Positions 2,314 through 46,947 of a DNA stretch of 64,000 nucleotides are shown in pieces. The stretch is from contig CAIFEG010000001.1 of the NCBI GenBank assembly GCA_903789415.1, forward strand, positions 12,876 through 76,875, given 5' to 3'. The notes under the pieces are model-generated. The model had not been told where the DNA came from and searched no databases. It saw nothing but the letters and a program-made list of their open reading frames with translations. This stretch comes from an uncultured Eggerthellaceae bacterium (GTDB lineage Bacteria > Actinomycetota > Coriobacteriia > Coriobacteriales > Eggerthellaceae). Made by a program: the position numbers and the translations under genes. Position 1 is the first letter of the stretch; each line of letters begins with the position of its first letter.

Positions 2314-2444
2314 TGCTCCTCCTAAAACAGGCATAAAACCTTTTAATTTAAGGAGAGCAAATATCGTGCCATTCTTAAGTTTTTAGATGCAATTATTCAG
2401 GGGTACGCCCTAAATCCTGGAGAAAAATCTCGTAAGAGGAGCGC

Positions 2445-2980
2445 ATGACATATCCCAAAAGTACCATTGATAAAGCTATAGCTTATATAGATCAAGGACA
2501 TACCCCATATGATGCAGCCTAGAAGTTTGACATTTGCCATGCCGCAGCATCAATCTGGTTGAGAAAACGGAATGGGAGAGAAAGACAGAGATATCAACTT
2601 AAAACCATCGCTGTTGCCTTAGTTGCAGCATATGGCGACAATAATATTTCTAACAAAGAGGTTGCATGCTTGTTTGGTGTGCCTGTCCCTACCATATCGT
2701 ATTGGAAGAAAAAGTACCTGGTAGAGAAGGGATGCAATTGTCTGAGATCAATTCCAAAGACCTCAAACACATCTCAGACGAAGTCCCGGTTAAAATGTCT
2801 GAGAAGGAGAAAGATGACTACATCCACAAGCTTGAACTTAAGACTGCAGTGCTTGAAGGTACAGTGAAAATTGTAAAAATCAGAGGTATCGAGGGGGAAA
2901 GCAATGACGGAAAGGCTACTCTCGTCGATACCTTAAAGAAAAGATTTACCATAAGAGGCGCTTTTTGCTCTAGGACTTAG
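2445..2980 (+). pseudogene. Broken IS3-type transposase orfA of the outer element
   Basis: Reading from the ATG at 2445 gives an N-terminus MTYPKSTIDKAIAYIDQG, then an in-frame TAG at about 2520. The same frame continues with a helix-turn-helix-like stretch (NISNKEVACLFGVPVPTISYWKKKY). At about 2740 the sense frame shifts and continues as MQLSEINSKDLKHISDE and a coiled, Lys/Glu-rich tail. This matches the HTH plus leucine-zipper layout of IS3 OrfA proteins. With at least one nonsense codon and one frameshift it cannot make an intact OrfA. Confidence 0.7.
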
Positions 2981-3055
2981 ATCCTCTAGCTATTACTACT
3001 GTACATATACATGATCGTTATACTGAAGCTAAAGAGATAATCAGAACTAGTAAAA

Positions 3056-3738
3056 GGTAGAAGAGGATACCGCTATATACGCCAGGGACTAAGGAAACGT
3101 AAAAACTCAATCATGATATCTGGTAAAACCGTAAGACGTTTGATGGCAGAGGAAGGTTTGGCAGTTACCTGCTACAAGAAAAACGTAGGTATAGCTCCTA
3201 TAAAGGTGAGATTAGTAAAGCATAATTTCCATACGTCTATTCCCAATATGCTTTGGCTTACCGATATCACCGAGTTTTCCATTCCAGAGAACAAAGTGTA
3301 TCTAAGCCCTGTCATAAGATTGCTTTGATGGAATGCCAGTTTCTTGAAGTATAGGGATACATCCTAATGTCCACCTTGCAAACTCTATGTTTACATCTCT
3401 ATGCTTACAAAAGCTTGTAAAAGCCTAGGCAGCAATGAACATCCCATAACCCACAGTGATCGTGGTTACCACTACTGCTAGCACAGCTGGATTAAGATAT
3501 ATAGAAAGTACGACTTTACCAAATCAATGTCTGCCAAGTGCTGCTCTCCTGATAATTCTGCTATGGAAGGATTCTTTGGAAGACTAAAAAACGAATTCTT
3601 CTATTACTTTGACTGGGATGGTGTAAGTACAGATGAATTTATGAAGCAGCTCGATGAGTATATGAGATATTATCGGGACGTGAGGTCCAAAGAATCCCTT
3701 GGATGGTTAAGCCCGAAGCAATACAGGAAGTCAAAAGG
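3056..3738 (+). pseudogene. Broken IS3-type transposase orfB of the outer element
   Basis: Fragments of an rve-type DDE integrase domain lie in several frames: GRRGYRYIRQGLRKR at about 3056, SGKTVRRLMAEEGL at about 3119, MLWLTDITEFSIPENKVYLSPVI (first catalytic Asp) near 3250-3320, HSDRGYHYC followed by a stop near 3457 (second Asp), and DNSAMEGFFGRLKNEFFYY with the catalytic Glu near 3550-3600. The C-terminal block ends with LGWLSPKQYRKSKG, where the inner element begins. Stops and frame changes separate the pieces, so the gene is dead. Confidence 0.75.
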
Positions 3739-3790
3739 TGGAATGGGTAAGATAAATTGAACACCAAGTTAAGAGCGAAAGGTGTTCGAT

Positions 3791-4090
3791 ATGACCCAAA
3801 CAAGAAAAAGATACGACAGGCAGTTCAAAATCTCTGCAGCCAAGGTGGTTCTTTCTGGCGATATGACAGTTAGAGAACTTTCAGAGGAGCTCAAGATTAA
3901 AGATTCGACATTGAGACGATGGGCAGCCGAATACACGGAGATGGGAGAAAATGCTTTTCCCGGTAACGGAAGTCCTAAGATCAATAAAGATTACGAGATC
4001 GTCAAACTAAAAAAGCAGGTAGAAGAACTAGAACGTGAGAATGAGCTACTAAAAAATTTCCGGGCCTTCTTGAGTCAAGACCATGCGTGA
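3791..4090 (+). CDS. IS3-family transposase OrfA
   Basis: This 99-residue protein has a helix-turn-helix near residues 15-50 (AKVVLSGDMTVRELSEELKI then STLRRWAAEY) and a C-terminal coiled coil (VKLKKQVEELERENELLKN). That is the DNA-binding and dimerisation layout of IS3 OrfA. The ATG at 3791 follows AAAGGTG; a GTG at 3782 in frame is less likely. The frame overlaps orfB, and an A6 run at 4051-4056 in codons CTA-AAA-AAT would allow a -1 slip into orfB, which is open from there. By analogy with the family, this would give the OrfAB transposase. Confidence 0.85.
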   Translation: MTQTRKRYDRQFKISAAKVVLSGDMTVRELSEELKIKDSTLRRWAAEYTEMGENAFPGNGSPKINKDYEIVKLKKQVEELERENELLKNFRAFLSQDHA

Positions 4091-4953
4091 GGTTTGAATT
4101 CCTCAAACAGCATAGGAACGAATACGGTCCCATCAAGAAGGCATGCAAGATTTTAAAGATATCGTCGTCGGGATACTATGAATACCTCCATAGGCGCAAA
4201 TCGAAATCTCAGATCGAACGTGAAGCGCTTGAGGGCTTTGTGAAAGAGATACTTGATCGTCATCGTGGGCGATATGGATATCGACGTATCAACAAAGAAT
4301 TAAGAAAAACTGGTATTACGGTAAGCAATAAACGAGTATTACACACCATGCAAAAGCTTAATCTCGTTGCCAAAGGTGCTACAAAGAAGCACAAACAACA
4401 CAAGGCAATAGCGCCTGGTGGTCCAAGAACTAATATAGTTGAACGTGTTTTTACGGTAAGTGAGAAAAACAGGTTGTGGGTTGGAGATATTACCTATATT
4501 CCAACCCAAGAGGGATGGCTCTACCTTGCTACAGTGATAGATGCGTTTTCTCGCAGGGTAATAGGATGGTCAATGTCTAATCGAATTACTGAAAAGATTG
4601 CAATTGATGCAATTGAACAGGCAATTGGCAGAGAAAACCCACCAGATGATGGCTCGCTTGTCTTCCATGATGATCAAGGAGTTCAGTACACATCACGAGC
4701 CTACCAAAAATGCCTTGAATCCCACGGAATTGTACAGTCTGTATCCCGTCCAGGCACTCCACTAGATAATGCAGTGGCAGAATCATTCTTTAAGACGCTC
4801 AAACGTGAGCTCGTAAATGAGAAGAGGTATAAGACAAGAGATGAAGCAAGACAAGATATCTTCAAGTACATTGAGCTCTATTACAATAGAGTGTGTCTCC
4901 ATTCAACATTAGGCTATGTATCTCCAGCAGTATACGAGCATGAATATGCTTGA
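4087..4953 (+). CDS. IS3-family transposase OrfB (DDE catalytic domain)
   Basis: The 288-residue frame begins with a GTG at 4087 but is open upstream to the A6 slip site, so it is probably made mainly as an OrfAB fusion. An HTH_21-like segment (HRGRYGYRRINKELRK) precedes the rve integrase core. All three catalytic acids are present: Asp in WVGDITYIP, Asp in VFHDDQGVQYTS, and Glu in DNAVAESFFKTLKRE. The C-terminus YNRVCLHSTLGYVSPAVYE is standard for the family. Nothing disrupts the frame, so the element may still be mobile. Confidence 0.88.
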   Translation: MRFEFLKQHRNEYGPIKKACKILKISSSGYYEYLHRRKSKSQIEREALEGFVKEILDRHRGRYGYRRINKELRKTGITVSNKRVLHTMQKLNLVAKGATKKHKQHKAIAPGGPRTNIVERVFTVSEKNRLWVGDITYIPTQEGWLYLATVIDAFSRRVIGWSMSNRITEKIAIDAIEQAIGRENPPDDGSLVFHDDQGVQYTSRAYQKCLESHGIVQSVSRPGTPLDNAVAESFFKTLKRELVNEKRYKTRDEARQDIFKYIELYYNRVCLHSTLGYVSPAVYEHEYA

Positions 4954-37020: not shown

Positions 37021-38229
37021 ATGACATCAGTAAATCTTGAAATCCTTAATTCCGCAGCTCAACCAGGTGGTCCATCGGCTCTTTCTGAGGTTACACATTT
37101 GCGTCCTGCCGCAGGCGAACAGGCCCTTATAGCACCTGCTAAGTATGCACTTCAAAATAGTGATTCCGGAACCTATGTTTTTGAAACACGATTTATTAAC
37201 GGAGAACCAACACGTACGGTACTAGTTGATTCACGTACCTCTATTGCAAACCGTATGGAAGATGCTATCCGACAAGCCATCAACAACGGGCATCCAATAT
37301 TCTCAAAAATGCCTAGAATTCGTGTCACATATCAAGATAAAGAAAATCCTATCGTCGAATGGGATCTTACGTTACCCCATCGAGCATTCGATGGGCATAT
37401 TCGCTTTGGTTATGTTGATGGGAAAGCCATCGACGACAATCCAGCATATTGGGCGGCGAGGAATTCTACACAACGTAACGCGTGGGATTTATTTGCAATT
37501 AGTCCCATAACCGTTTTATTCGGAGGTTGGGATTCTCTCCGTAAACTACACCAGGCAAAGTTCCCCGCAGCAGTTGTTGGTGAAATTATTGGTGTTCTTG
37601 CAGATCAATATTCAGAACCAAATTCATTAGTAACTAAAAGATCAGGTGCAAGAATAGACCCAATAGCTGCTAGCGTTAGTATTTCTTCAGAGACAGCTGG
37701 AAAAATAGCTAAAGCAACAGAAAAGAGCCTAATTGAAAAGAAAATAAAAAAATTAAATGGCACTAAAAAAGATGTAAAGGGTTCTGAACTTGGACTTGGG
37801 AGCATCCCCCCAGGAGTAGAGGCCCTCGATGGAATTGCAACATCTAGTATTATTCGCTCATATGTCCTGAGCTTTGCAACATTACGCCAGCTCCATTTTG
37901 GAAAAGGTGCCGATGGAGATGCATCAATTCGATCACTCCTTTCTGCAATGGCTATCGATGCAATGGTCCGAGCTGATAGCGAATTATACCTAAGGGCTAA
38001 TACGCATCTAATAGAAGCAGAAAAACCCATATGCAAGGTTGACCAACGAATGGGCGATTCTCTTCAATGCGAACCATTAACCATTGATCAAGCCGACAAT
38101 TTATTAGAAGAAGCATATGCGCAAGCAGCAGAAAAAACAGGCATCCAATGGCAAGGCCAAATTCTCGAAGTTACTGGCGAGCCAGGAATTATCGCTAAAG
38201 CAAGCGCCGAGGAGGAAGATAAGGAGTAG
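37021..38229 (+). CDS. csb1: Type I-G CRISPR protein Csb1 (Cas7)
   Basis: The 402-residue protein matches the GSU0053/Csb1 pattern: a long RAMP-type Cas7 protein with DSRTSIANRMEDAIRQAINN near residue 70, the block DLFAISPITVLFGGWDSLRK near 160-180, and AKFPAAVVGEIIG. Csb1 forms the multi-copy backbone of the I-G interference complex along the crRNA. The C-terminus is charged (ASAEEEDKE). It is the first gene of the cas operon, 5 bases before csb2. The gene is A+T-rich like the rest of the block. Confidence 0.85.
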   Translation: MTSVNLEILNSAAQPGGPSALSEVTHLRPAAGEQALIAPAKYALQNSDSGTYVFETRFINGEPTRTVLVDSRTSIANRMEDAIRQAINNGHPIFSKMPRIRVTYQDKENPIVEWDLTLPHRAFDGHIRFGYVDGKAIDDNPAYWAARNSTQRNAWDLFAISPITVLFGGWDSLRKLHQAKFPAAVVGEIIGVLADQYSEPNSLVTKRSGARIDPIAASVSISSETAGKIAKATEKSLIEKKIKKLNGTKKDVKGSELGLGSIPPGVEALDGIATSSIIRSYVLSFATLRQLHFGKGADGDASIRSLLSAMAIDAMVRADSELYLRANTHLIEAEKPICKVDQRMGDSLQCEPLTIDQADNLLEEAYAQAAEKTGIQWQGQILEVTGEPGIIAKASAEEEDKE

Positions 38230-38234
38230 GAGCT

Positions 38235-39869
38235 ATGTCTCTGAAAATTAGCGCTGAATTTCTCTTTGGTTATTATCAGGGTCATGATCGAGCTCATCAC
38301 TCAGAAAAATATCCAAGTATTGCAAGACTACAATCTGCATTCATTTCTGCAGCATATTCAGTTGCCACATATGACAAAAACACCGAAGGTAGCTTAACTA
38401 AAGATGGCGATGTTAGAGAACTACCAGAATATTTAAAAGCTGCAGTGGAATGGTTTGAGAGCAATCCACCTGACGCTATTTCTTTTCCAAATGGAATAGC
38501 AAATGAAACAGGCGAAGTGATCGCTTTTCGCAATAAAGAAAAATATAAAGTTTCTAAAGGTGACTCTTTTTTCATTACAGAACCACAAGGCGAGCGCGCG
38601 GTATCAAGGACAGCTTTGGACGGACCCGTGATTTGGTGGTGGCAAAACTCACCTGATCATAATACTTTTGTGCTACTTAAAAAGCTCTCAACCGAAATTG
38701 CATATCTTGGTGAAGTATCGTCCCCAGTAAAAATTTCAGTGACTGAGATATCCAAAATTCCTGCAGATGCGTACCAGCATTTAGAGGGGCATAATCTTAA
38801 TTACGCAAATGATATAAAATGCCCTGTTCCTATTTGCGGAAGAGCAGATTTCCTTCAAAGAGAGTATTTACAAAACAATAGTAAGATCCCGAAAAAAGAA
38901 GGTTCGCATTTAGACAAGAGCGGAGAATTCCCTTTACCAGTATCCTATAAAGGAGTGGTAACAGAGTTTTACCGTTCTCCACAACCAGTATTTCAAAACG
39001 TTCCATGGCAAACAGGGACCTTGTTACAAGTGGAAAAAGATAATGGAGATCCTTGGATCCCTCTTGAAAAAGACTATCTAAGATGGGCAGTAGTTCTTCA
39101 TCGTGCACTTGTCAAAATATGTGGCGATAACCTTCCTATATTTTTAGGTGGTAAAAGATTAAAACGTTTTAATCCACAGCTAAAGCAACCTGCAAACGGA
39201 CTTTCAATCCAGATTCTTTCACCTGATATGCCGTTATCATTTGAATTTGCTAATAAAGGGTCAGCTTTTCTCTTAATGTTTCCAAATGACGCCCAAAACG
39301 AAGACATTGCTCTTATCAAAAGCATTACAAGAAGAGGCTTAAAGCTATATGGAAAAGGCCTCGGAAGAATCCACGTAAAAACAGCGCAAGAGAATATTGA
39401 TTTAACTTCTTTATGGAAGAATCCTGATGCTGGAAATCAAAGATGGTGGCGACCATATCCTCTATATGTAAGCGATAGTAGACCTCCAAGTAAGTATGGT
39501 CAAAAGTGGACAATCGCCGATGCAATGCGTGTTTCAATAGGCTACGTTTTCCGAGATAAATTTCATGTTTCAGGTAATAGTGACCAACGCCAGCTTTTAC
39601 TTTCTAAACTGGTAACAGAATCAGAAATAGAAATAATTGGCGAACATAGCTTACACCCAGAAAATCCAAACAATTATATTCACCATATGAATAAAGGATC
39701 ATTTTTCCTAGCAGGAACAGCACTTATTAATTTTGGCGAATTATTGGGGAAATGTCAGACTGCTGCCTTAGCTATTGGCCAAACGCGCCATTTATCTGGT
39801 GGATTTCTGGTTCCTATTGATATTCCTGTTATTGATAAAAGAAAAAGCGACGGGAAGAAGGCAATATGA
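38235..39869 (+). CDS. csb2: Type I-G CRISPR protein Csb2 (Cas5/Cas6)
   Basis: The 544-residue protein starts after AGGAGTAGGAGCT. Its N-terminus (LKISAEFLFGYYQGHDRAHH) and the segments ARLQSAFISAAYSVATYD and AVEWFESNPPDAISFPNG fit Csb2 (GSU0054), the long I-G subunit that combines Cas5-like 5'-end binding with a Cas6-like part. The later third contains TALINFGELLGKCQTAALAIGQTRHLSGG, with a Gly-rich loop typical of RAMP folds and a His that could act in crRNA cleavage. No separate cas6 gene exists here, so Csb2 probably processes the pre-crRNA. Its stop overlaps the cas3 start (ATGA). Confidence 0.82.
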   Translation: MSLKISAEFLFGYYQGHDRAHHSEKYPSIARLQSAFISAAYSVATYDKNTEGSLTKDGDVRELPEYLKAAVEWFESNPPDAISFPNGIANETGEVIAFRNKEKYKVSKGDSFFITEPQGERAVSRTALDGPVIWWWQNSPDHNTFVLLKKLSTEIAYLGEVSSPVKISVTEISKIPADAYQHLEGHNLNYANDIKCPVPICGRADFLQREYLQNNSKIPKKEGSHLDKSGEFPLPVSYKGVVTEFYRSPQPVFQNVPWQTGTLLQVEKDNGDPWIPLEKDYLRWAVVLHRALVKICGDNLPIFLGGKRLKRFNPQLKQPANGLSIQILSPDMPLSFEFANKGSAFLLMFPNDAQNEDIALIKSITRRGLKLYGKGLGRIHVKTAQENIDLTSLWKNPDAGNQRWWRPYPLYVSDSRPPSKYGQKWTIADAMRVSIGYVFRDKFHVSGNSDQRQLLLSKLVTESEIEIIGEHSLHPENPNNYIHHMNKGSFFLAGTALINFGELLGKCQTAALAIGQTRHLSGGFLVPIDIPVIDKRKSDGKKAI

Positions 39870-42802
39870 ATAATGCAGTAATAAACGCATTTGGCTTGCC
39901 AAAAGATACTCTCATTTCTGACTTTAAGGAGTTTTTCTCTTCGTTGAATAATGGGGAAAAACCTTATCAATGGCAAGTACGTTTACTTGAATTTCTCATC
40001 GACAACAAAAAGTGGCCAGATATGCTTGACGTTCCTACCGGAGCCGGAAAAACATCAGCAATTGAGATTCATTTGTTTTTGAATGGTGCGATCGGTACGC
40101 ATAAAAGTGCTATTCCACGCAGACTTCTCATGACAGTGAATAGACGAGCTTTGGTGGATAGCCAATTTGAACATGCGAAACAGATTCACGAAAATATGCT
40201 TAGCGGTTATCAAGAAAACCCCGAAGGCATTATTGGAAAGATCGTCACAGGGCTTATCCAAAGACAAGTTGGCACAGTAAAGAAGAAAAATAATATTGAT
40301 TTTTTCTCAACTGTGGAACTTCGAGGAGGACTAGATGATTTGAATGCAAATTCACGCGATTGGAAACTTCACCCAACACGTGTAATGATTATTTGTGCTA
40401 CGCCAGACATGATTGGAAGCAGGCTGCTGTTTCGCGGCTATGGGACAAGTAAACGAGCGCGACCAATTGAAGCAGGGTTGCTCGCTTATGATTCAGTTCT
40501 ATTCCTAGATGAAGCACATCTCAACCGGCAGCTAAATATAACTGCAAGACAAATTAAACGCATTGAATCTTACGCAGAGCATCCTTTAAAGGCAAGTCCC
40601 CTGCAAGTTTGCGCAGCATCAGCAACACAAGTAAATGATTCAAAATGGTATAACCCTGAAAAAGAAAACGAACTCACTGCTATAAAGCTTGAGCAAAAGG
40701 ATTTTGAAGTAGATCAAACTTTACGCAAACGTATGCTTCGTCCAAAACCTGTAACAACATTTGAAGTTAATACACGAAAGAAAGACTGGACAAAACAGAT
40801 TGTAGGTCTTTGCCAAAACATGCATCAACAAGTTGGCGGAACTATTGGATGTATTTTTAATTCAGCTCACATTGCTTCAGTTTTTGCACAGAAGCTTGAA
40901 CAAGTTGCACCTCATTTACATGTTGAATGTATCGTCGGTAAAATGCGACCTTTCGATAGAAAGCATATAGAGAAGCAACTTCTTGATCCGGACCAGTTTG
41001 CCAAAATTGATATTTTGGTAGGAACTCAAACTTTAGAAGTCGGTTTAGATGTTGACTTTCGTGGGTTAATTACTGAGCTTGCTGATCAATCGGCACTTAT
41101 TCAACGTTCTGGACGTGTAAATCGTTTTGGTAAATATAAAGACGCACCTATCTGGGTTTGGGCTCCAAAAGAACTTAAGAATTCAATCTATGTAGAGAAA
41201 GATTTAAAAACAGCAAAAGCATGGCTCGAGTCTCTTAATGAAAACGGTTTGCGCCCGCTCCTTTCTTCAAAAGCAGTTCACCCTCGAAGAAGAGCTTTTG
41301 AGCGTTTAGAGTTAACGGATGTCGATTACCTAAGTAATACCGGCGAAGACATGGCAGCTGAATCACCTGTCTTAACCGGACATCCTTCAAATCTTGATCT
41401 TTGGTTGCGCGATGACTTCTCTGAATCACCCGAAGTATATTTCGTTGTAAGAAAACGCCCCCAAGCTCAAAACGAGAGTTCTATGGTCAGACCAATTTCA
41501 GATGCAAATATGACTAAGCTGCTTGAACTGGTTCCTCCGATTGAAGTAGAAATGATTCCATGCATAATTCCCTGGGCTAGAAATGTCCTTAATGTTTTGA
41601 CAGATCCTAGCTCAACCTCAAATTCATCTGTCTTATTGATAAGGCACGATGCTCCTATTACTGCTTGCACCTCAGAAACTTCAATTGCACCTGGTGACAT
41701 TTTCGTTGTTAGCGATGAAGTAAAAATCTTCCTTAGAGATATTGTTTATATGCCAAAAGATAAAGGCACTTTAACTGAAAACAATATTTCGAAAGATGAT
41801 ATTTATTACAAGGCCATTAGCGAGAAAAACCAAAAGAAAGATTTCCCTGTCCCCTTGTTCGTTCTACCGGAGGTAGATTCTCTAGTTGAAAAAGAAAGTA
41901 TAAGTATTCGCTGTACGCCTGAGTTAAAAGAAATTGCTACCGAGTATATTGAGAATCCCACAGAATTTGAAAACATTACAATTGAGAATGCTCTAAATAA
42001 TTTAACAGCTGCTGATCATCAAAAAAGTCCTGTTGCAGAGCAACTTTTAGAAGCAGTGCATAACGACAATGGCGCAGGAACTTGGGATCTATTACTGTGG
42101 GGCGATCTGCCAGACGATGGGTTCGCTATCGTCTATACGCCATCAACTAGTGGCCTTCAGAATTTCAGTGAAAGAATGTCTCACAACACAAATAGAGCTG
42201 TGCTTCTTAAAGATCATAATGCTGCAGTTTCAGAACGTGCATCACAAATTGCAGACAATCTTTATCTCACTGATAGAGAAAAACAAACGCTTATAGTAGC
42301 TGGAAAATGGCACGATGCGGGGAAAATCGATCCTCGTTTTCAGGAATTGTTGAGGCTCAATAGTTCCTCGAAAAGCTTCCCTGATTTACCTCTCGCCAAG
42401 GGAAGACAATCATCGCGTCAAAAAGAAAGAATTTTTCGAAAAACTTGCGCTCTAGACGGCTGGAGACACGAACAATTGTCAGCAGCAATGGTTTGGTCCT
42501 CTGCAGAGGATTTTGATAATTTAGACAAAGAGCTAGTGGCTCGTTTAGTGGGCCAGAGCCATGGACATGGTTGTACACTTTTTAAGCAGAATTCAAACGA
42601 ATTGCTTCGAGGTATTGCATCGATCGAAACGCCTGATCAATCATCAAATAAAATCATTGAATCTGCCTCTCTTCTTTTCGATACTGGCCTTTGGGATCGA
42701 ATTGTTTCTTTGACAAACCACCGTTATGGGTATTGGGCAACAGCATATCTTGAAGCCCTACTGCGTGCAGCTGATGCTCAAGTTTCAGCTGAAGGCAGGT
42801 GA
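39866..42802 (+). CDS. cas3: Type I-G CRISPR helicase-nuclease Cas3
   Basis: This 978-residue protein has the SF2 helicase first and the HD nuclease last, the order typical of I-G (I-U) Cas3. Walker A is VPTGAGKTSA (57-66), motif II LFLDEAHLN (about 213), motif VI LIQRSGRVNRFG (about 411). The HD domain begins GKWHDAGKIDPRFQELL (about 812) and includes WRHEQLSAAMVW and VGQSHGHGC, so all expected His/Asp ligands are visible. It unwinds and degrades target DNA recruited by the crRNA complex. The frame is intact. It overlaps both neighbours by four bases. Confidence 0.93.
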   Translation: MNNAVINAFGLPKDTLISDFKEFFSSLNNGEKPYQWQVRLLEFLIDNKKWPDMLDVPTGAGKTSAIEIHLFLNGAIGTHKSAIPRRLLMTVNRRALVDSQFEHAKQIHENMLSGYQENPEGIIGKIVTGLIQRQVGTVKKKNNIDFFSTVELRGGLDDLNANSRDWKLHPTRVMIICATPDMIGSRLLFRGYGTSKRARPIEAGLLAYDSVLFLDEAHLNRQLNITARQIKRIESYAEHPLKASPLQVCAASATQVNDSKWYNPEKENELTAIKLEQKDFEVDQTLRKRMLRPKPVTTFEVNTRKKDWTKQIVGLCQNMHQQVGGTIGCIFNSAHIASVFAQKLEQVAPHLHVECIVGKMRPFDRKHIEKQLLDPDQFAKIDILVGTQTLEVGLDVDFRGLITELADQSALIQRSGRVNRFGKYKDAPIWVWAPKELKNSIYVEKDLKTAKAWLESLNENGLRPLLSSKAVHPRRRAFERLELTDVDYLSNTGEDMAAESPVLTGHPSNLDLWLRDDFSESPEVYFVVRKRPQAQNESSMVRPISDANMTKLLELVPPIEVEMIPCIIPWARNVLNVLTDPSSTSNSSVLLIRHDAPITACTSETSIAPGDIFVVSDEVKIFLRDIVYMPKDKGTLTENNISKDDIYYKAISEKNQKKDFPVPLFVLPEVDSLVEKESISIRCTPELKEIATEYIENPTEFENITIENALNNLTAADHQKSPVAEQLLEAVHNDNGAGTWDLLLWGDLPDDGFAIVYTPSTSGLQNFSERMSHNTNRAVLLKDHNAAVSERASQIADNLYLTDREKQTLIVAGKWHDAGKIDPRFQELLRLNSSSKSFPDLPLAKGRQSSRQKERIFRKTCALDGWRHEQLSAAMVWSSAEDFDNLDKELVARLVGQSHGHGCTLFKQNSNELLRGIASIETPDQSSNKIIESASLLFDTGLWDRIVSLTNHRYGYWATAYLEALLRAADAQVSAEGR

Positions 42803-43875
42803 GTACTTTGGTTATAAAAGGAGATATAACAGACTTATTTGTTCATTGCACAGCTTTAGGATTAGCTGCCATAGTAGAAGAAACCACTGGACAAGGCGTC
42901 TTAATCAAATGGATTGACCAAAATCAAGTTCAAGTTATTTCTGAAAACGGACTTGATGATAAGGAAATGACAGGGCAAGTAATTACCTTTACTAAACGCT
43001 CCTTAGAAGCAAAATGGCCAGAAGCTGAAATTACTTTTAAATATGCTGATAAATCAGGGAAGCAAAAAGAAGCCGCAGCATCGCCTTTGAGTCCTAAAGT
43101 CAATTCATCAATAGAAACAAACGAAGAGGGCCTTTTGCGCTACAAACAAGGCAGAATGTCAGCCATGCAACTTATGGATAATAATTTGCTTTCCCAAATT
43201 GCATTAAATAACTTAGGCTCTCCTGCTTATTGGGCAATGGACAACAAGGGACACTTTAACTCAAGTAAAGTTGATGTAGGTCTAAGTCCATGGGCGATGT
43301 CAGATACCCGCCGTGGAGATGATTTTGTACGCTCACGATTAAAACCAGTATGCCAACTTGTTTCAAAGATAGAAAATAATGAGTCAGCTATTCATCGCCT
43401 ATGTGGCGATAGATGCAAAGACGAACTAAATCAACAAAAACTTTTATCGCAAAGCACTTCTGCAACCGGTTTAAGAATGAGAGGGCCCGCTGATACTCTT
43501 CAATTATGGTGTGCCCTGCATGCTTTTGTATTCTTCCCTATTCGTTCTGTTGTTTCATATGGTCACTCATTACAGTCTAACGCTATAGGCGCCATTACTA
43601 TTCAGAATCACTCTAGAAGAAGCATCTTCTTTTGTCTCCCCATATTCTCGAAACCGACGTATATCGAGCATATTCGTTCTACACTCCGATCTCGCCCTTT
43701 TTATGAAAAATGTAAATATTTTATTTCTCAACAGACTGATTCGAATGCGCAAAAAGCTCAAATGCGGAAATCAGATTATCAAGCGTTAGCGCTATTCCCA
43801 CGTGTAGCAAAATACGATGCAAGTTATACCGAATATTGGGCAGATTATGGGCAACTTTTCAATTTATCTAATTAA
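42799..43875 (+). CDS. csb3: Type I-G CRISPR-associated protein Csb3-like (Cas8-type subunit)
   Basis: A 358-residue protein starts at a GTG that overlaps the cas3 stop. It has no catalytic motif that I recognise. Its position after cas3, its size, and blocks such as NNLGSPAYWAMDNKGHF, VGLSPWAMSDTRRGDDFVRSR and ADTLQLWCALHAFVFFPI fit Csb3 (GSU0052 type), considered a small Cas8-like subunit of I-G complexes. The longer Csx17 protein, found in many I-G loci, is absent here, so this one should be the only large-subunit candidate. The assignment rests on position and pattern, not on an alignment. Confidence 0.65.
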   Translation: MSTLVIKGDITDLFVHCTALGLAAIVEETTGQGVLIKWIDQNQVQVISENGLDDKEMTGQVITFTKRSLEAKWPEAEITFKYADKSGKQKEAAASPLSPKVNSSIETNEEGLLRYKQGRMSAMQLMDNNLLSQIALNNLGSPAYWAMDNKGHFNSSKVDVGLSPWAMSDTRRGDDFVRSRLKPVCQLVSKIENNESAIHRLCGDRCKDELNQQKLLSQSTSATGLRMRGPADTLQLWCALHAFVFFPIRSVVSYGHSLQSNAIGAITIQNHSRRSIFFCLPIFSKPTYIEHIRSTLRSRPFYEKCKYFISQQTDSNAQKAQMRKSDYQALALFPRVAKYDASYTEYWADYGQLFNLSN

Positions 43876-43889
43876 ACGAGGTGCTTATT

Positions 43890-45475
43890 ATGGATGACGA
43901 TAAAATACCAATTAGCCTTGTTCTTCAATGGGTATATTACCCACGTCGCGCATGGCTTGAAGCATCTGGAAAAAAACTGATACCTTCCAAATGCAAGTTG
44001 GGTTCAATGCGCATAAGAATGTTGATAACTATTCCACTGAACGGAAAAATGAAATTCGATCTCTCGAAGTTTCAAGCGAGGAGCTTGGACTTACTGGAAA
44101 GTTAGATAGTATCATCAAAACAGATGCTGGCCTCGAGATAATTGAATATAAAGCAACTCCCATAAGAAAAAGCCCTGAGATTACTGAAGCTATGCGCATT
44201 CAATTGGCTTTACAACAAAAATGTCTAGAAGATTCAGGTTACAACGTATCTAAAACTTCTATCTTCTTTACATCGCATCATCGTCACGTTGAAGTTAAAC
44301 TCACTAAGAAAGATTATGCTGCTGCAATAAATGCAGTAAGGCAAACAAAGAAGCTAATTTCTGCAAGCTCTTCCCCGGAACCTCTTGAAGATGATCCACG
44401 TTGCGACCACTGTTCACATGAAGGAGTGTGCCTACCTGAAGAGCGAAAATTACAACCAGTTGCTAAGCGAATACTCGTTAATGACCCGGATAGCAAGGTT
44501 GTATACCTTACAACTCCAGGCTCTTACGCAAGAGTTAAGCAAGGACAAATGATTGTAGTTAAAGATAGAAAAACTCTTGCAAAAATTCCTTTGGAAACCA
44601 TTCAAGCTCTTGAACTTCATGGGAATATCAATATATCTGGCGGTCTGATTCGTGAGTTGCTTTGGAGGGGGCTGACTATTCTTTGGTGTACTGGGTCAGG
44701 GAAATTAACAGGTTGGGCAGTTTCATCATATGGTCCTAACGGCCAAACGCGCACAGAGCAGCACATTGCATCTTACGAAGGAAGATTGGCCTTTGCCCGT
44801 GAATTTATTGCTTGCAAAATTGCTAATCAGGCTACGCAACTCAGGAGAGGCGGAATAGACAAAAAGATCATCAATCAGTTACGCACAATTCAAGCTCATG
44901 CAAATGTCGCAGAACGATGGCAAGATGTCCTCGGGTGCGAGGGTGATGCTGCAGCACTCTATTTCAAATACTGGATTTTGCTATTGAAAGAGCCACAGCG
45001 TAGCTGCTGGAAATGGCACGGAAGAAGCGGAAGACCTGCCAAAGATGCTTTAAATGCAATGTTTAATTACACGTATACTTTATTATTGGGTGATATAGTT
45101 CGCGCAATCATTGCATGTGGGCTTGATCCACATGCTGGTTTTCTCCATAGTAGCGGGAGAAATAAGCCAGCTCTGGCTCTTGATTTAATGGAGGAATTCA
45201 GAGCACCGATTGCAGATTCTGCTGTGCAAACTGTAGTGAATAACGGGGAAATTAAATCTTCTGAATTTCAGTACATTCTTGATAGTGTACGCATGCAAAA
45301 TAGTGCGCGGAAAACATTGATCGCTGCTTATGAACGTAGAATAATGACTGAGATTCATCATCCCATTTTTGGATATTCGGTCACATGGCGTAGAGCAATT
45401 GAAATCCAAGCTCGTCAAATACTAGGAGTGCTCGAAGGATCTCAATCTCGATACAAGGGAATTCGCATAAGATGA
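43890..45475 (+). CDS. cas4-cas1: Cas4-Cas1 fusion, reading frame shifted at an A7 tract
   Basis: The ATG at 43890 follows GAGGTG and starts DDDKIPISLVLQWVYYPRRAW, a Cas4 N-terminus. This frame runs off at 44105. The true continuation (KTDTFQMQVGFNAHK, then SEELGLTGKLDSI and EIIEYKAT) lies in the -1 frame and joins exactly at AAAAAAA, 43970-43976, read GGA-AAA-AAA-CTG. The Cas4 domain has RCDHCSHEGVC (three Cys), while the N-terminal Cys position (usually YCPR) is Tyr. Cas1 follows intact, with Glu in LGCEGDAAALYF, and GFLHSSG and LDLMEEFRAPIAD. Spacer acquisition depends on this protein. The shift could be slippage, a mutation or a sequencing error. Confidence 0.85.
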
Positions 45476-45771
45476 GCAAAGATTTACATAGATATTTAGT
45501 AGCTTATGACATTAGCAGTGACCATCGTCGATCTCGAGTTTCAACTGTATTGCAATCTTATGGTTATCGTCTGCAATACAGTTTATTTGAAATAGAAGCA
45601 TCCCCTACCCGCATTGAACGACTTTTGGTGCAACTTGAAAATGAAATATCAATTCATGAAGATTCAGTACTCATTTACGATTTAGGAAAAATAGCGTCAG
45701 CAAGAAAAAGAAATATTTTGCAATTAGGCGCCTTGATTGATCCGCAAGCGGAAGGCCCAATTGTTATCTAG
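45472..45771 (+). CDS. cas2: CRISPR-associated endoribonuclease Cas2
   Basis: This 99-residue protein has the Cas2 ferredoxin-like fold pattern: RYLVAYDISSDHRRSRVSTV with the conserved Asp, LQSYGYRLQYSLFEIEAS, and a late ISIHEDSVLIYDLG. It bridges Cas1 dimers in the adaptation complex. The ATGA overlap with the fusion gene shows that the two are translated together, in line with a functional adaptation pair. It is the last cas gene; the leader follows. Confidence 0.93.
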   Translation: MSKDLHRYLVAYDISSDHRRSRVSTVLQSYGYRLQYSLFEIEASPTRIERLLVQLENEISIHEDSVLIYDLGKIASARKRNILQLGALIDPQAEGPIVI

Positions 45772-46052
45772 CTAATCCAAAGAAGTTAGACCAAAAATCC
45801 CCAAATAGGTTTCTGCAATTCAGTCGTTCTATTTAACTTGCTCTAGTCTCTGAGGGAAGAAAGCATATTGACTATTATGCGAGAAGTTGTTCGTCGCTAA
45901 TTGTTTCATGACTTCTCGCATCTTTATTCCGCCTGATGAGTCTCGTAACCATTTTTTTGCAGATTGTCTTTCCATATGGAAACTACTTAATTTGGTTATA
46001 TTTCGCATTCGGCTACGAAAAAGCTGGTAAAAGCGATGATACTATAGAGGCT
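45772..46052 (+). promoter_or_regulatory. CRISPR leader region with 11-bp inverted repeat
   Basis: These 281 A+T-rich bases lie between cas2 and the first repeat. ATGCGAGAAGT (45877-45887) is matched by ACTTCTCGCAT (45911-45921), a perfect inverted repeat with a 23-base loop, followed by CTTTATT. It could end cas transcription or be a protein or IHF-like bending site in the leader. GATACTATAG just before the array (about 46039-46048) may be the -10 of the array promoter. The orientation agrees with decay at the other end of the array. Confidence 0.65.
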
Positions 46053-46947
46053 ATGGCTGGGATATTTTCCCAGTCCCTTCGTTGAGGGATTACAAGCGCG
46101 TTGGATTGATGGAGGAACGCACAGATGGCTGGGATATTTTCCCAGTCCCTTCGTTGAGGGGTCTTAGAGGTTACGCCGAGCATTTCAACTGGTAGAGATG
46201 GCTGGGATATTTTCCCAGTCCCTTCGTTGAGGGACCTCTACCATCACCATGGCAAGCGGGTGGACGAATGGCTGGGATATTTTCCCAGTCCCTTCGTTGA
46301 GGGGCAGAAAAGAGGGAACGTGTCTCGCAGTAAGCAAAATGGCTGGGATATTTTCCCAGTCCCTTCGTTGAGGGTTGCGCCGCGCCTTGCCTGAATTGAC
46401 GCCGCCCTTATGGCTGGGATATTTTCCCAGTCCCTTCGTTGAGGGATGGAGCAAGTCACGGGGATTGCCGCGGCTTTGAAATGGCTGGGATATTTTCCCA
46501 GTCCCTTCGTTGAGGGGTTCGTGGGATCGATGGCGAAGCAGACTTTTTCGTATGGCTGGGATATTTTCCCAGCCCCTTCGTTGAGGGAACTGCAGGCACA
46601 TTGTGTATCCGATCATCTTAGGACATGGCTGGGATATTTTCCCAGTCCCTTCGTTGAGGGACGCCGTACATGTCGCTCCACGCTTGCAACTCTTCGATGG
46701 CTGGGATATTTTCCCAGTCCCTTCGTTGAGGGTTAAAGGCTATCCATCCTCATATGTGCGATGAGACATGGCTGGGATATTTTCCCAGTCCCTTCGTTGA
46801 GGGAACAAGTTAGGGTTAAATGGCTACGTCGGGAGCTAATGGCTGGGATATTTTCCCAGTCCCTTCGCTGGGGGGAAGGCAAGATCGAGCCATTCGTGGT
46901 GCAGCTTGGATATGGCTGGGATATTTTCCCAGCCCCTTCGTTGAATG
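46053..46947 (+). CRISPR. CRISPR array, 13 repeats of 36 bases, 12 spacers
   Basis: Repeats start at 46053, 46125, 46198, 46268, 46339, 46410, 46481, 46552, 46625, 46697, 46768, 46839 and 46912. Each begins ATGGCTGGGATATTTTCCCA and ends CCCTTCGTTGAGGG; CTGGGA/TCCCAG forms a 6-bp stem with a TATTT loop. Spacers are 34-37 bases. The repeat at 46552 has one change (AGCCCC for AGTCCC); the one at 46839 reads CGCTGGGGG at its end; the last one has AGCCCC and ends TTGAATG. Decay at the right end shows that transcription runs rightwards from the leader beside cas2. Confidence 0.98.

What the first reader, a model, noticed from the sequence alone, without database searches (positions are those of the whole stretch)
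43890..45475. Cas4-Cas1 fusion needs a -1 shift exactly at an A7 tract
The Cas4 start frame (43890-44105) and the frame that holds the rest of Cas4 and all of Cas1 join without loss of a residue if the ribosome or polymerase slips by -1 at AAAAAAA, 43970-43976, in the phase A-AAA-AAA. This is the ideal heptamer for slippage, and the downstream Cas1 and Cas2 genes are intact and translationally coupled. Three explanations are open: programmed slippage that makes Cas4-less and fused products, an inactivating indel, or a sequencing error in a homopolymer. An internal ATG at 43991 could also yield a Cas1 with truncated Cas4.
Basis: partly seen in the sequence, partly recalled or inferred. Interest (0 to 1): 0.75.

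Follow-up and report, generated by a model that had tools for sequence, protein, structure and literature searches.

The report
Broken Cas4-Cas1 gene, not programmed slippage
One CRISPR spacer-acquisition gene in this gut-type bacterium is split by a one-base frameshift near its start and also lacks a cysteine that every relative keeps, so it is most likely a freshly broken gene rather than a gene that uses ribosome slippage.

Summary
The sequence observation is correct. The type I-G cas4-cas1 fusion starts at 43890, and the reading frame shifts by one base at or next to A7 (43970-43976). The rest of Cas4, all of Cas1 and the overlapping cas2 are intact. The shift joins the frames with no residue lost: the joined protein aligns without a gap to an intact relative (71% identity).

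The slippage reading is not supported. All 19 relatives found are in one frame at this point, with no A7 tract. No Shine-Dalgarno-like element or significant downstream structure was found. The same heptamer in the same phase lies in the intact csb1 gene of the same operon. A joined product would carry Lys where all 19 relatives have Glu, which suggests that the base was lost in that Glu codon and A7 is a by-product.

Independently of the join, the N-terminal Fe-S cysteine is Tyr (C17Y), although it is Cys in all 19 relatives. This argues for real decay rather than a base-calling slip, although error cannot be excluded without reads. The internal ATG (43991) has no ribosome-binding site. Best reading: recent loss of Cas4-Cas1 function. 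Two type II loci with their own cas1-cas2 remain elsewhere in the genome.

The parts
37021..38229 (+). csb1 / cas7g (intact); holds A_AAA_AAA at 37746-37752 in the same phase, an internal control
   Evidence: TIGR02570 and PF09617; phase
38235..39869 (+). csb2 / cas5-6 (intact)
   Evidence: TIGR02165, E 5e-45
39866..42802 (+). cas3g (intact)
   Evidence: TIGR02621, 602.9 bits
42799..43875 (+). fourth effector gene, 358 aa, no family hit; homologous to the 366-aa gene at the same place in L039
   Evidence: BLASTP 86 bits, E 3e-23
43890..44105 (+). out-of-frame Cas4 start ORF: 29 codons of true Cas4 N-terminus (with C17Y), then nonsense to TAG
43970..43976 (+). A7 tract at the frame change, at the codons for the conserved Gly-Glu-Lys
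43991..45475 (+). rest of Cas4 (RecB motifs and three C-terminal cysteines) and complete Cas1, in the other frame
   Evidence: NF049935 model positions 56-546, PF01867 251 bits
45472..45771 (+). cas2 (intact, overlaps cas1 end by ATGA)
   Evidence: TIGR01573, PF09827
46053..46947 (+). CRISPR array: 13 repeats of 36 nt, 12 spacers of 34-37 nt; repeats vary mainly at the far end

Best explanation
This is a type I-G cas4-cas1 fusion gene recently inactivated by a one-base loss around its 28th-29th codon. Ribosomes start well at 43890, read 29 true codons, run out of frame and stop at 44105. Cas1 is not made, or is made only in traces from the unsupported ATG 43991 or by rare spontaneous slippage. 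The locus can probably still use its existing spacers (csb1, csb2, cas3 and the fourth effector gene are intact) but probably no longer acquires new PAM-selected spacers. Shown: the two frames, the intact relatives, the loss of the Fe-S cysteine. Inferred: that the indel is real, that it is recent, and that adaptation is lost.
For: All 19 relatives (Eggerthellaceae, Coriobacteriaceae, Bifidobacterium, Actinomyces, Gordonia, Nocardia, Corynebacterium) are open across this point without A7. C17, the N-terminal Fe-S ligand, is Tyr here and Cys in 19 of 19. E28, at the join, is Glu in 19 of 19 and would be Lys in the joined product. Of 117 columns invariant in 18 full-length relatives the window breaks five; C17Y and E28K are the two in the first 29 residues (2 of 8, against 3 of 109 elsewhere; Fisher p 0.037; no single relative breaks more than one there). 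A one-base loss in the Glu codon would itself merge the flanking A bases into A7 (inference). No ribosome-binding site at 43991; the next in-frame starts are at 44192, 44204 and 44426. In F. novicida, Cas4 C16A (the same cysteine) is insoluble, and strain U112 carries a natural nonsense codon at the start of cas4 (PMC13034035). Another relative, B. vespertilionis, has a large in-frame deletion in the same gene (L063).
Against: The Cas1 and remaining Cas4 frame shows no decay yet: no stops, and the codon-position pattern stays strongly constrained. The array is tidy. E28K depends on where the join is placed. The statistic rests on two residues. No reads or second strain were available.
Confidence: 0.66

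Rival explanations
1. Sequencing or assembly error: the base is present in the living strain and the gene is one intact frame.
For: The genome is a 49-contig draft. The rest of the gene is constrained. No other gene in the cas operon is broken, so a lone one-base fault could be technical.
Against: C17Y, a separate substitution at an invariant Fe-S ligand 11 codons upstream, is not explained by a homopolymer miscall. A7 tracts in other window genes were called without breaking them. If the Glu codon was ancestral, the missing base is not a homopolymer base.
Confidence: 0.24
2. Programmed -1 slippage (ribosome or polymerase) at A_AAA_AAA makes a fused Cas4-Cas1 at a set ratio.
For: Heptamer in the correct phase, exact residue-for-residue join, conserved Cas1 frame.
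Against: No relative has A7 or a shift. No Shine-Dalgarno-like element upstream; downstream fold no better than shuffles (z 0.48, -0.37 and -1.15). Same heptamer in phase in intact csb1. The fused product would still lack the Fe-S cysteine and carry Lys for an invariant Glu. The zero-frame product is a 71-aa fragment with no domain hit.
Confidence: 0.06
3. Reinitiation or internal start at ATG 43991 (or later) gives a working Cas1 with an N-truncated or absent Cas4.
For: The 494-aa frame keeps the RecB motifs, three C-terminal cysteines and full Cas1. Purifying pattern retained.
Against: No ribosome-binding site at 43991, which lies inside a translated out-of-frame ORF; the next in-frame start is 87 nt past the stop. 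The product lacks the first 34 residues, including the Fe-S cysteine region.
Confidence: 0.04

Closest known systems
Type I-G Cas4/1 fusion (Geobacter sulfurreducens, PDB 7MI4; Methanosarcina barkeri, PMC10504553)
   Same: Same fused Cas4-Cas1 order and same motifs; 7MI4 is the best solved match to the intact G037 relative (E 2e-80)
   Different: Here the gene is split by a frameshift and has lost the N-terminal Fe-S cysteine
Natural cas4 nonsense allele of Francisella novicida U112 (PMC13034035)
   Same: A lesion at the very start of cas4, in front of the Fe-S cysteine, with a possible shorter product
   Different: Type V-A, separate cas4 gene, stop codon rather than frameshift
A-tract -1 frameshift signals (dnaX, IS3 orfAB; from own knowledge)
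   Same: A-rich slippery heptamer in the right phase
   Different: No stimulatory elements found, not conserved, fused product appears damaged

Membership tests
Type I-G CRISPR-Cas system | csb1, csb2 and cas3g with fused cas4-cas1, cas2 and array | tested here: met
   TIGR02570, TIGR02165, TIGR02621, NF049935 (partial, below its cut-off), TIGR01573; 13-repeat array
Functional type I-G Cas4/1 | One uninterrupted Cas4-Cas1 frame | tested here: not met
   Two frames, TAG at 44105; no relative is frameshifted here
Functional type I-G Cas4/1 | Four Fe-S cysteines | tested here: not met
   C17 is Tyr; the C-terminal three are present
Functional type I-G Cas4/1 | RecB residues and complete Cas1 domain | tested here: met
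   H42, D73, E86, K88, Q105 kept in the alignment; PF01867 1-282 of 283
Programmed -1 frameshift site | Slippery heptamer in correct phase | tested here: met
   GGA AAA AAA
Programmed -1 frameshift site | Upstream Shine-Dalgarno-like element or downstream structure | tested here: not met
   None by reading; folds within shuffle range
Programmed -1 frameshift site | Conservation of the site in relatives | tested here: not met
   0 of 19
Programmed -1 frameshift site | Fused product is made | not testable with these tools
   Needs proteomics or a reporter
Pseudogene | Frame lesion plus loss of residues invariant in relatives | tested here: met
   Frameshift, C17Y and, on the joined reading, E28K
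Sequencing error | Base present in raw reads | not testable with these tools
   No reads or second strain; no copy found in viral contigs or plasmids

The most novel reading that the evidence does not exclude
The A7 acts as a reversible on/off switch (phase variation by tract length, or low-level slippage) for spacer acquisition, with an Fe-S-deficient Cas4 that relaxes PAM choice.
Probability: 0.05. Interest if true: 0.75.

Novelty: already known. Interest (0 to 1): 0.15.

Why it matters
It is an example of an adaptation gene decaying while the effector genes and array stay whole, a known kind of event. It would matter more if reads from a population showed mixed tract lengths, which would make switching of CRISPR adaptation testable.

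Tried and rejected
A single-protein scan of genome contigs found nothing; an alignment query then gave 19 named loci. Search for other alleles of the tract in viral contigs: none. Plasmids: none. L010 first looked like a disrupted fusion but is a type I-C-like locus with separate cas4 and cas1. A second Cas4 in the genome that could act in trans: none found. PAM inference from the single weak spacer match (33 nt, 4 mismatches, E 0.3) was not usable. The whole genome was not available as a file, so the genome-wide frameshift rate was not measured. Literature on programmed frameshifting in cas genes: nothing relevant in the library. The key paper on Cas4-Cas1 fusions and PAM choice (NAR 2019, gkz217) is not held.

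Full report
Observation. The window lies in a 1.88-Mb, 49-contig draft genome. A member of the same family, G037, carries the same contig as the record 'uncultured Eggerthellaceae bacterium UMB00101', so the family is taken to be Eggerthellaceae. At 37021-46947 there is a type I-G CRISPR locus: csb1, csb2, cas3g, a 358-aa fourth effector gene (homologous to the gene at the same place in L039), cas4-cas1, cas2 and an array of 13 repeats. The cas4-cas1 start frame runs from ATG 43890 to TAG at 44105; the rest of Cas4 and all Cas1 lie in the other frame to 45475. The frame change falls at A7, 43970-43976, in the phase A-AAA-AAA.

Is it one gene? Yes. The joined 528-residue protein aligns without gaps to the intact 528-residue protein of G037 (L008), at 71% identity. 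The 29 codons before the tract differ from G037 at 20 third positions but at only 3 first and 2 second positions; the part after the tract has the same constrained pattern. The lesion is therefore young compared with the divergence from G037.

Relatives. Nineteen loci with the fusion were found in named genomes: Eggerthellaceae, Coriobacteriaceae, an Atopobium MAG, Bifidobacterium, Actinomyces, Gordonia, Nocardia and Corynebacterium. All are open across this place, and none has an A7 tract or a shift. The codons there read Gly-Glu-(Lys/Gln/Arg/His). One relative, B. vespertilionis (L063), has a different defect, a large in-frame deletion joining the middle of Cas4 to the middle of Cas1. Searches of the family (138 genomes), 398 genomes of the class and 397 of the order turned up only intact close relatives; the window's genus holds only this genome.

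Second lesion. The N-terminal cysteine of Cas4 (YCPRRAW or FCPRRAW) is tyrosine here (VYYPRRAW). It is Cys in 19 of 19 relatives. This residue is one of the four Fe-S ligands of Cas4 (PMC12538437), and in F. novicida the equivalent C16A makes the protein insoluble (PMC13034035). If the frames are joined at A7, the product has Lys at a position that is Glu in 19 of 19. Of 117 columns invariant in the 18 full-length relatives, the window breaks five: C17Y, E28K, V98I, R220Q and L392F. Two of these lie among the 8 invariant columns of the first 29 residues, three among the other 109 (Fisher p 0.037, small numbers). E28K follows most simply if a base of the Glu codon was lost, which by itself runs the flanking A bases together into A7. 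On that reading the tract is the result of the deletion, not a signal that was selected. The alternative, a Glu-to-Lys change followed by loss of one A from a longer run, is also possible.

Programmed slippage. The heptamer and phase are right, but nothing else is. There is no Shine-Dalgarno-like element upstream (by reading) and no structure beyond shuffles (z 0.48, -0.37 and -1.15). The same heptamer in the same phase (ATA AAA AAA TTA, 37746) sits in the intact csb1 gene of the same operon. A7 is rarer than expected in the window, 7 against 28. The zero-frame product is a 71-aa fragment without a domain hit. The fused product would still lack the cysteine.

Internal start. ATG 43991 is preceded by AAAAAACTGATACCTTCCAA, without a ribosome-binding site, and lies within the out-of-frame ORF that starts from a good site at 43890. 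The next in-frame starts are 44192, 44204 and 44426. Some Cas1 may be made, but there is no sign of design.

Error. This cannot be excluded from a consensus. The C17Y change and the correct calling of the other A7 tracts in genes argue against it, and so does the likelihood that the lost base was not a homopolymer base. I put it at about one in four.

Consequence. In type I-G the Cas4 domain cuts the PAM end and directs orientation, and Cas1 integrates (PMC10504553). Loss of this protein should stop or corrupt uptake while leaving interference from existing spacers. No other Cas4 was found in the genome, but two type II loci with their own cas1 and cas2 were. The best single verdict is a young loss-of-function allele of an ordinary type I-G adaptation gene.

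Noticed in passing
window 2335-4953: Decayed IS3-type transposase remnants (2335-3760) next to an apparently intact IS3-type pair of ORFs (3782-4090 and 4087-4953) that overlap as orfA and orfB, with AAAAAA near the end of orfA. This resembles a genuine place for programmed -1 slippage, seen by ORF reading only.
   Followed up: no
L063 8001-8900 (Bifidobacterium vespertilionis): cas4-cas1 with a large in-frame internal deletion that fuses half of Cas4 to half of Cas1 (300 aa instead of about 528); cas2 follows.
   Followed up: partly
L002 and L004 (own genome, contigs C11 and C17): Two type II CRISPR loci: a Cas9-like C-terminal ORF with cas1 and cas2 on each, plus a csn2-like ORF on C17. Assigned by reading the ORFs, apart from the Cas1 family hits.
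   Followed up: partly
window 46875-46911: The last spacer resembles a portal-gene stretch of Phage nd12 and of a human faecal phage contig (29 of 33 nt, E 0.3): weak.
   Followed up: partly
L045 / L046 (G037 contig 26, bases 1-2709): In the closest relative, cas4-cas1, cas2 and the array stand near a contig end, and no effector genes are seen in the roughly 800 bases upstream, unlike in the window.
   Followed up: no
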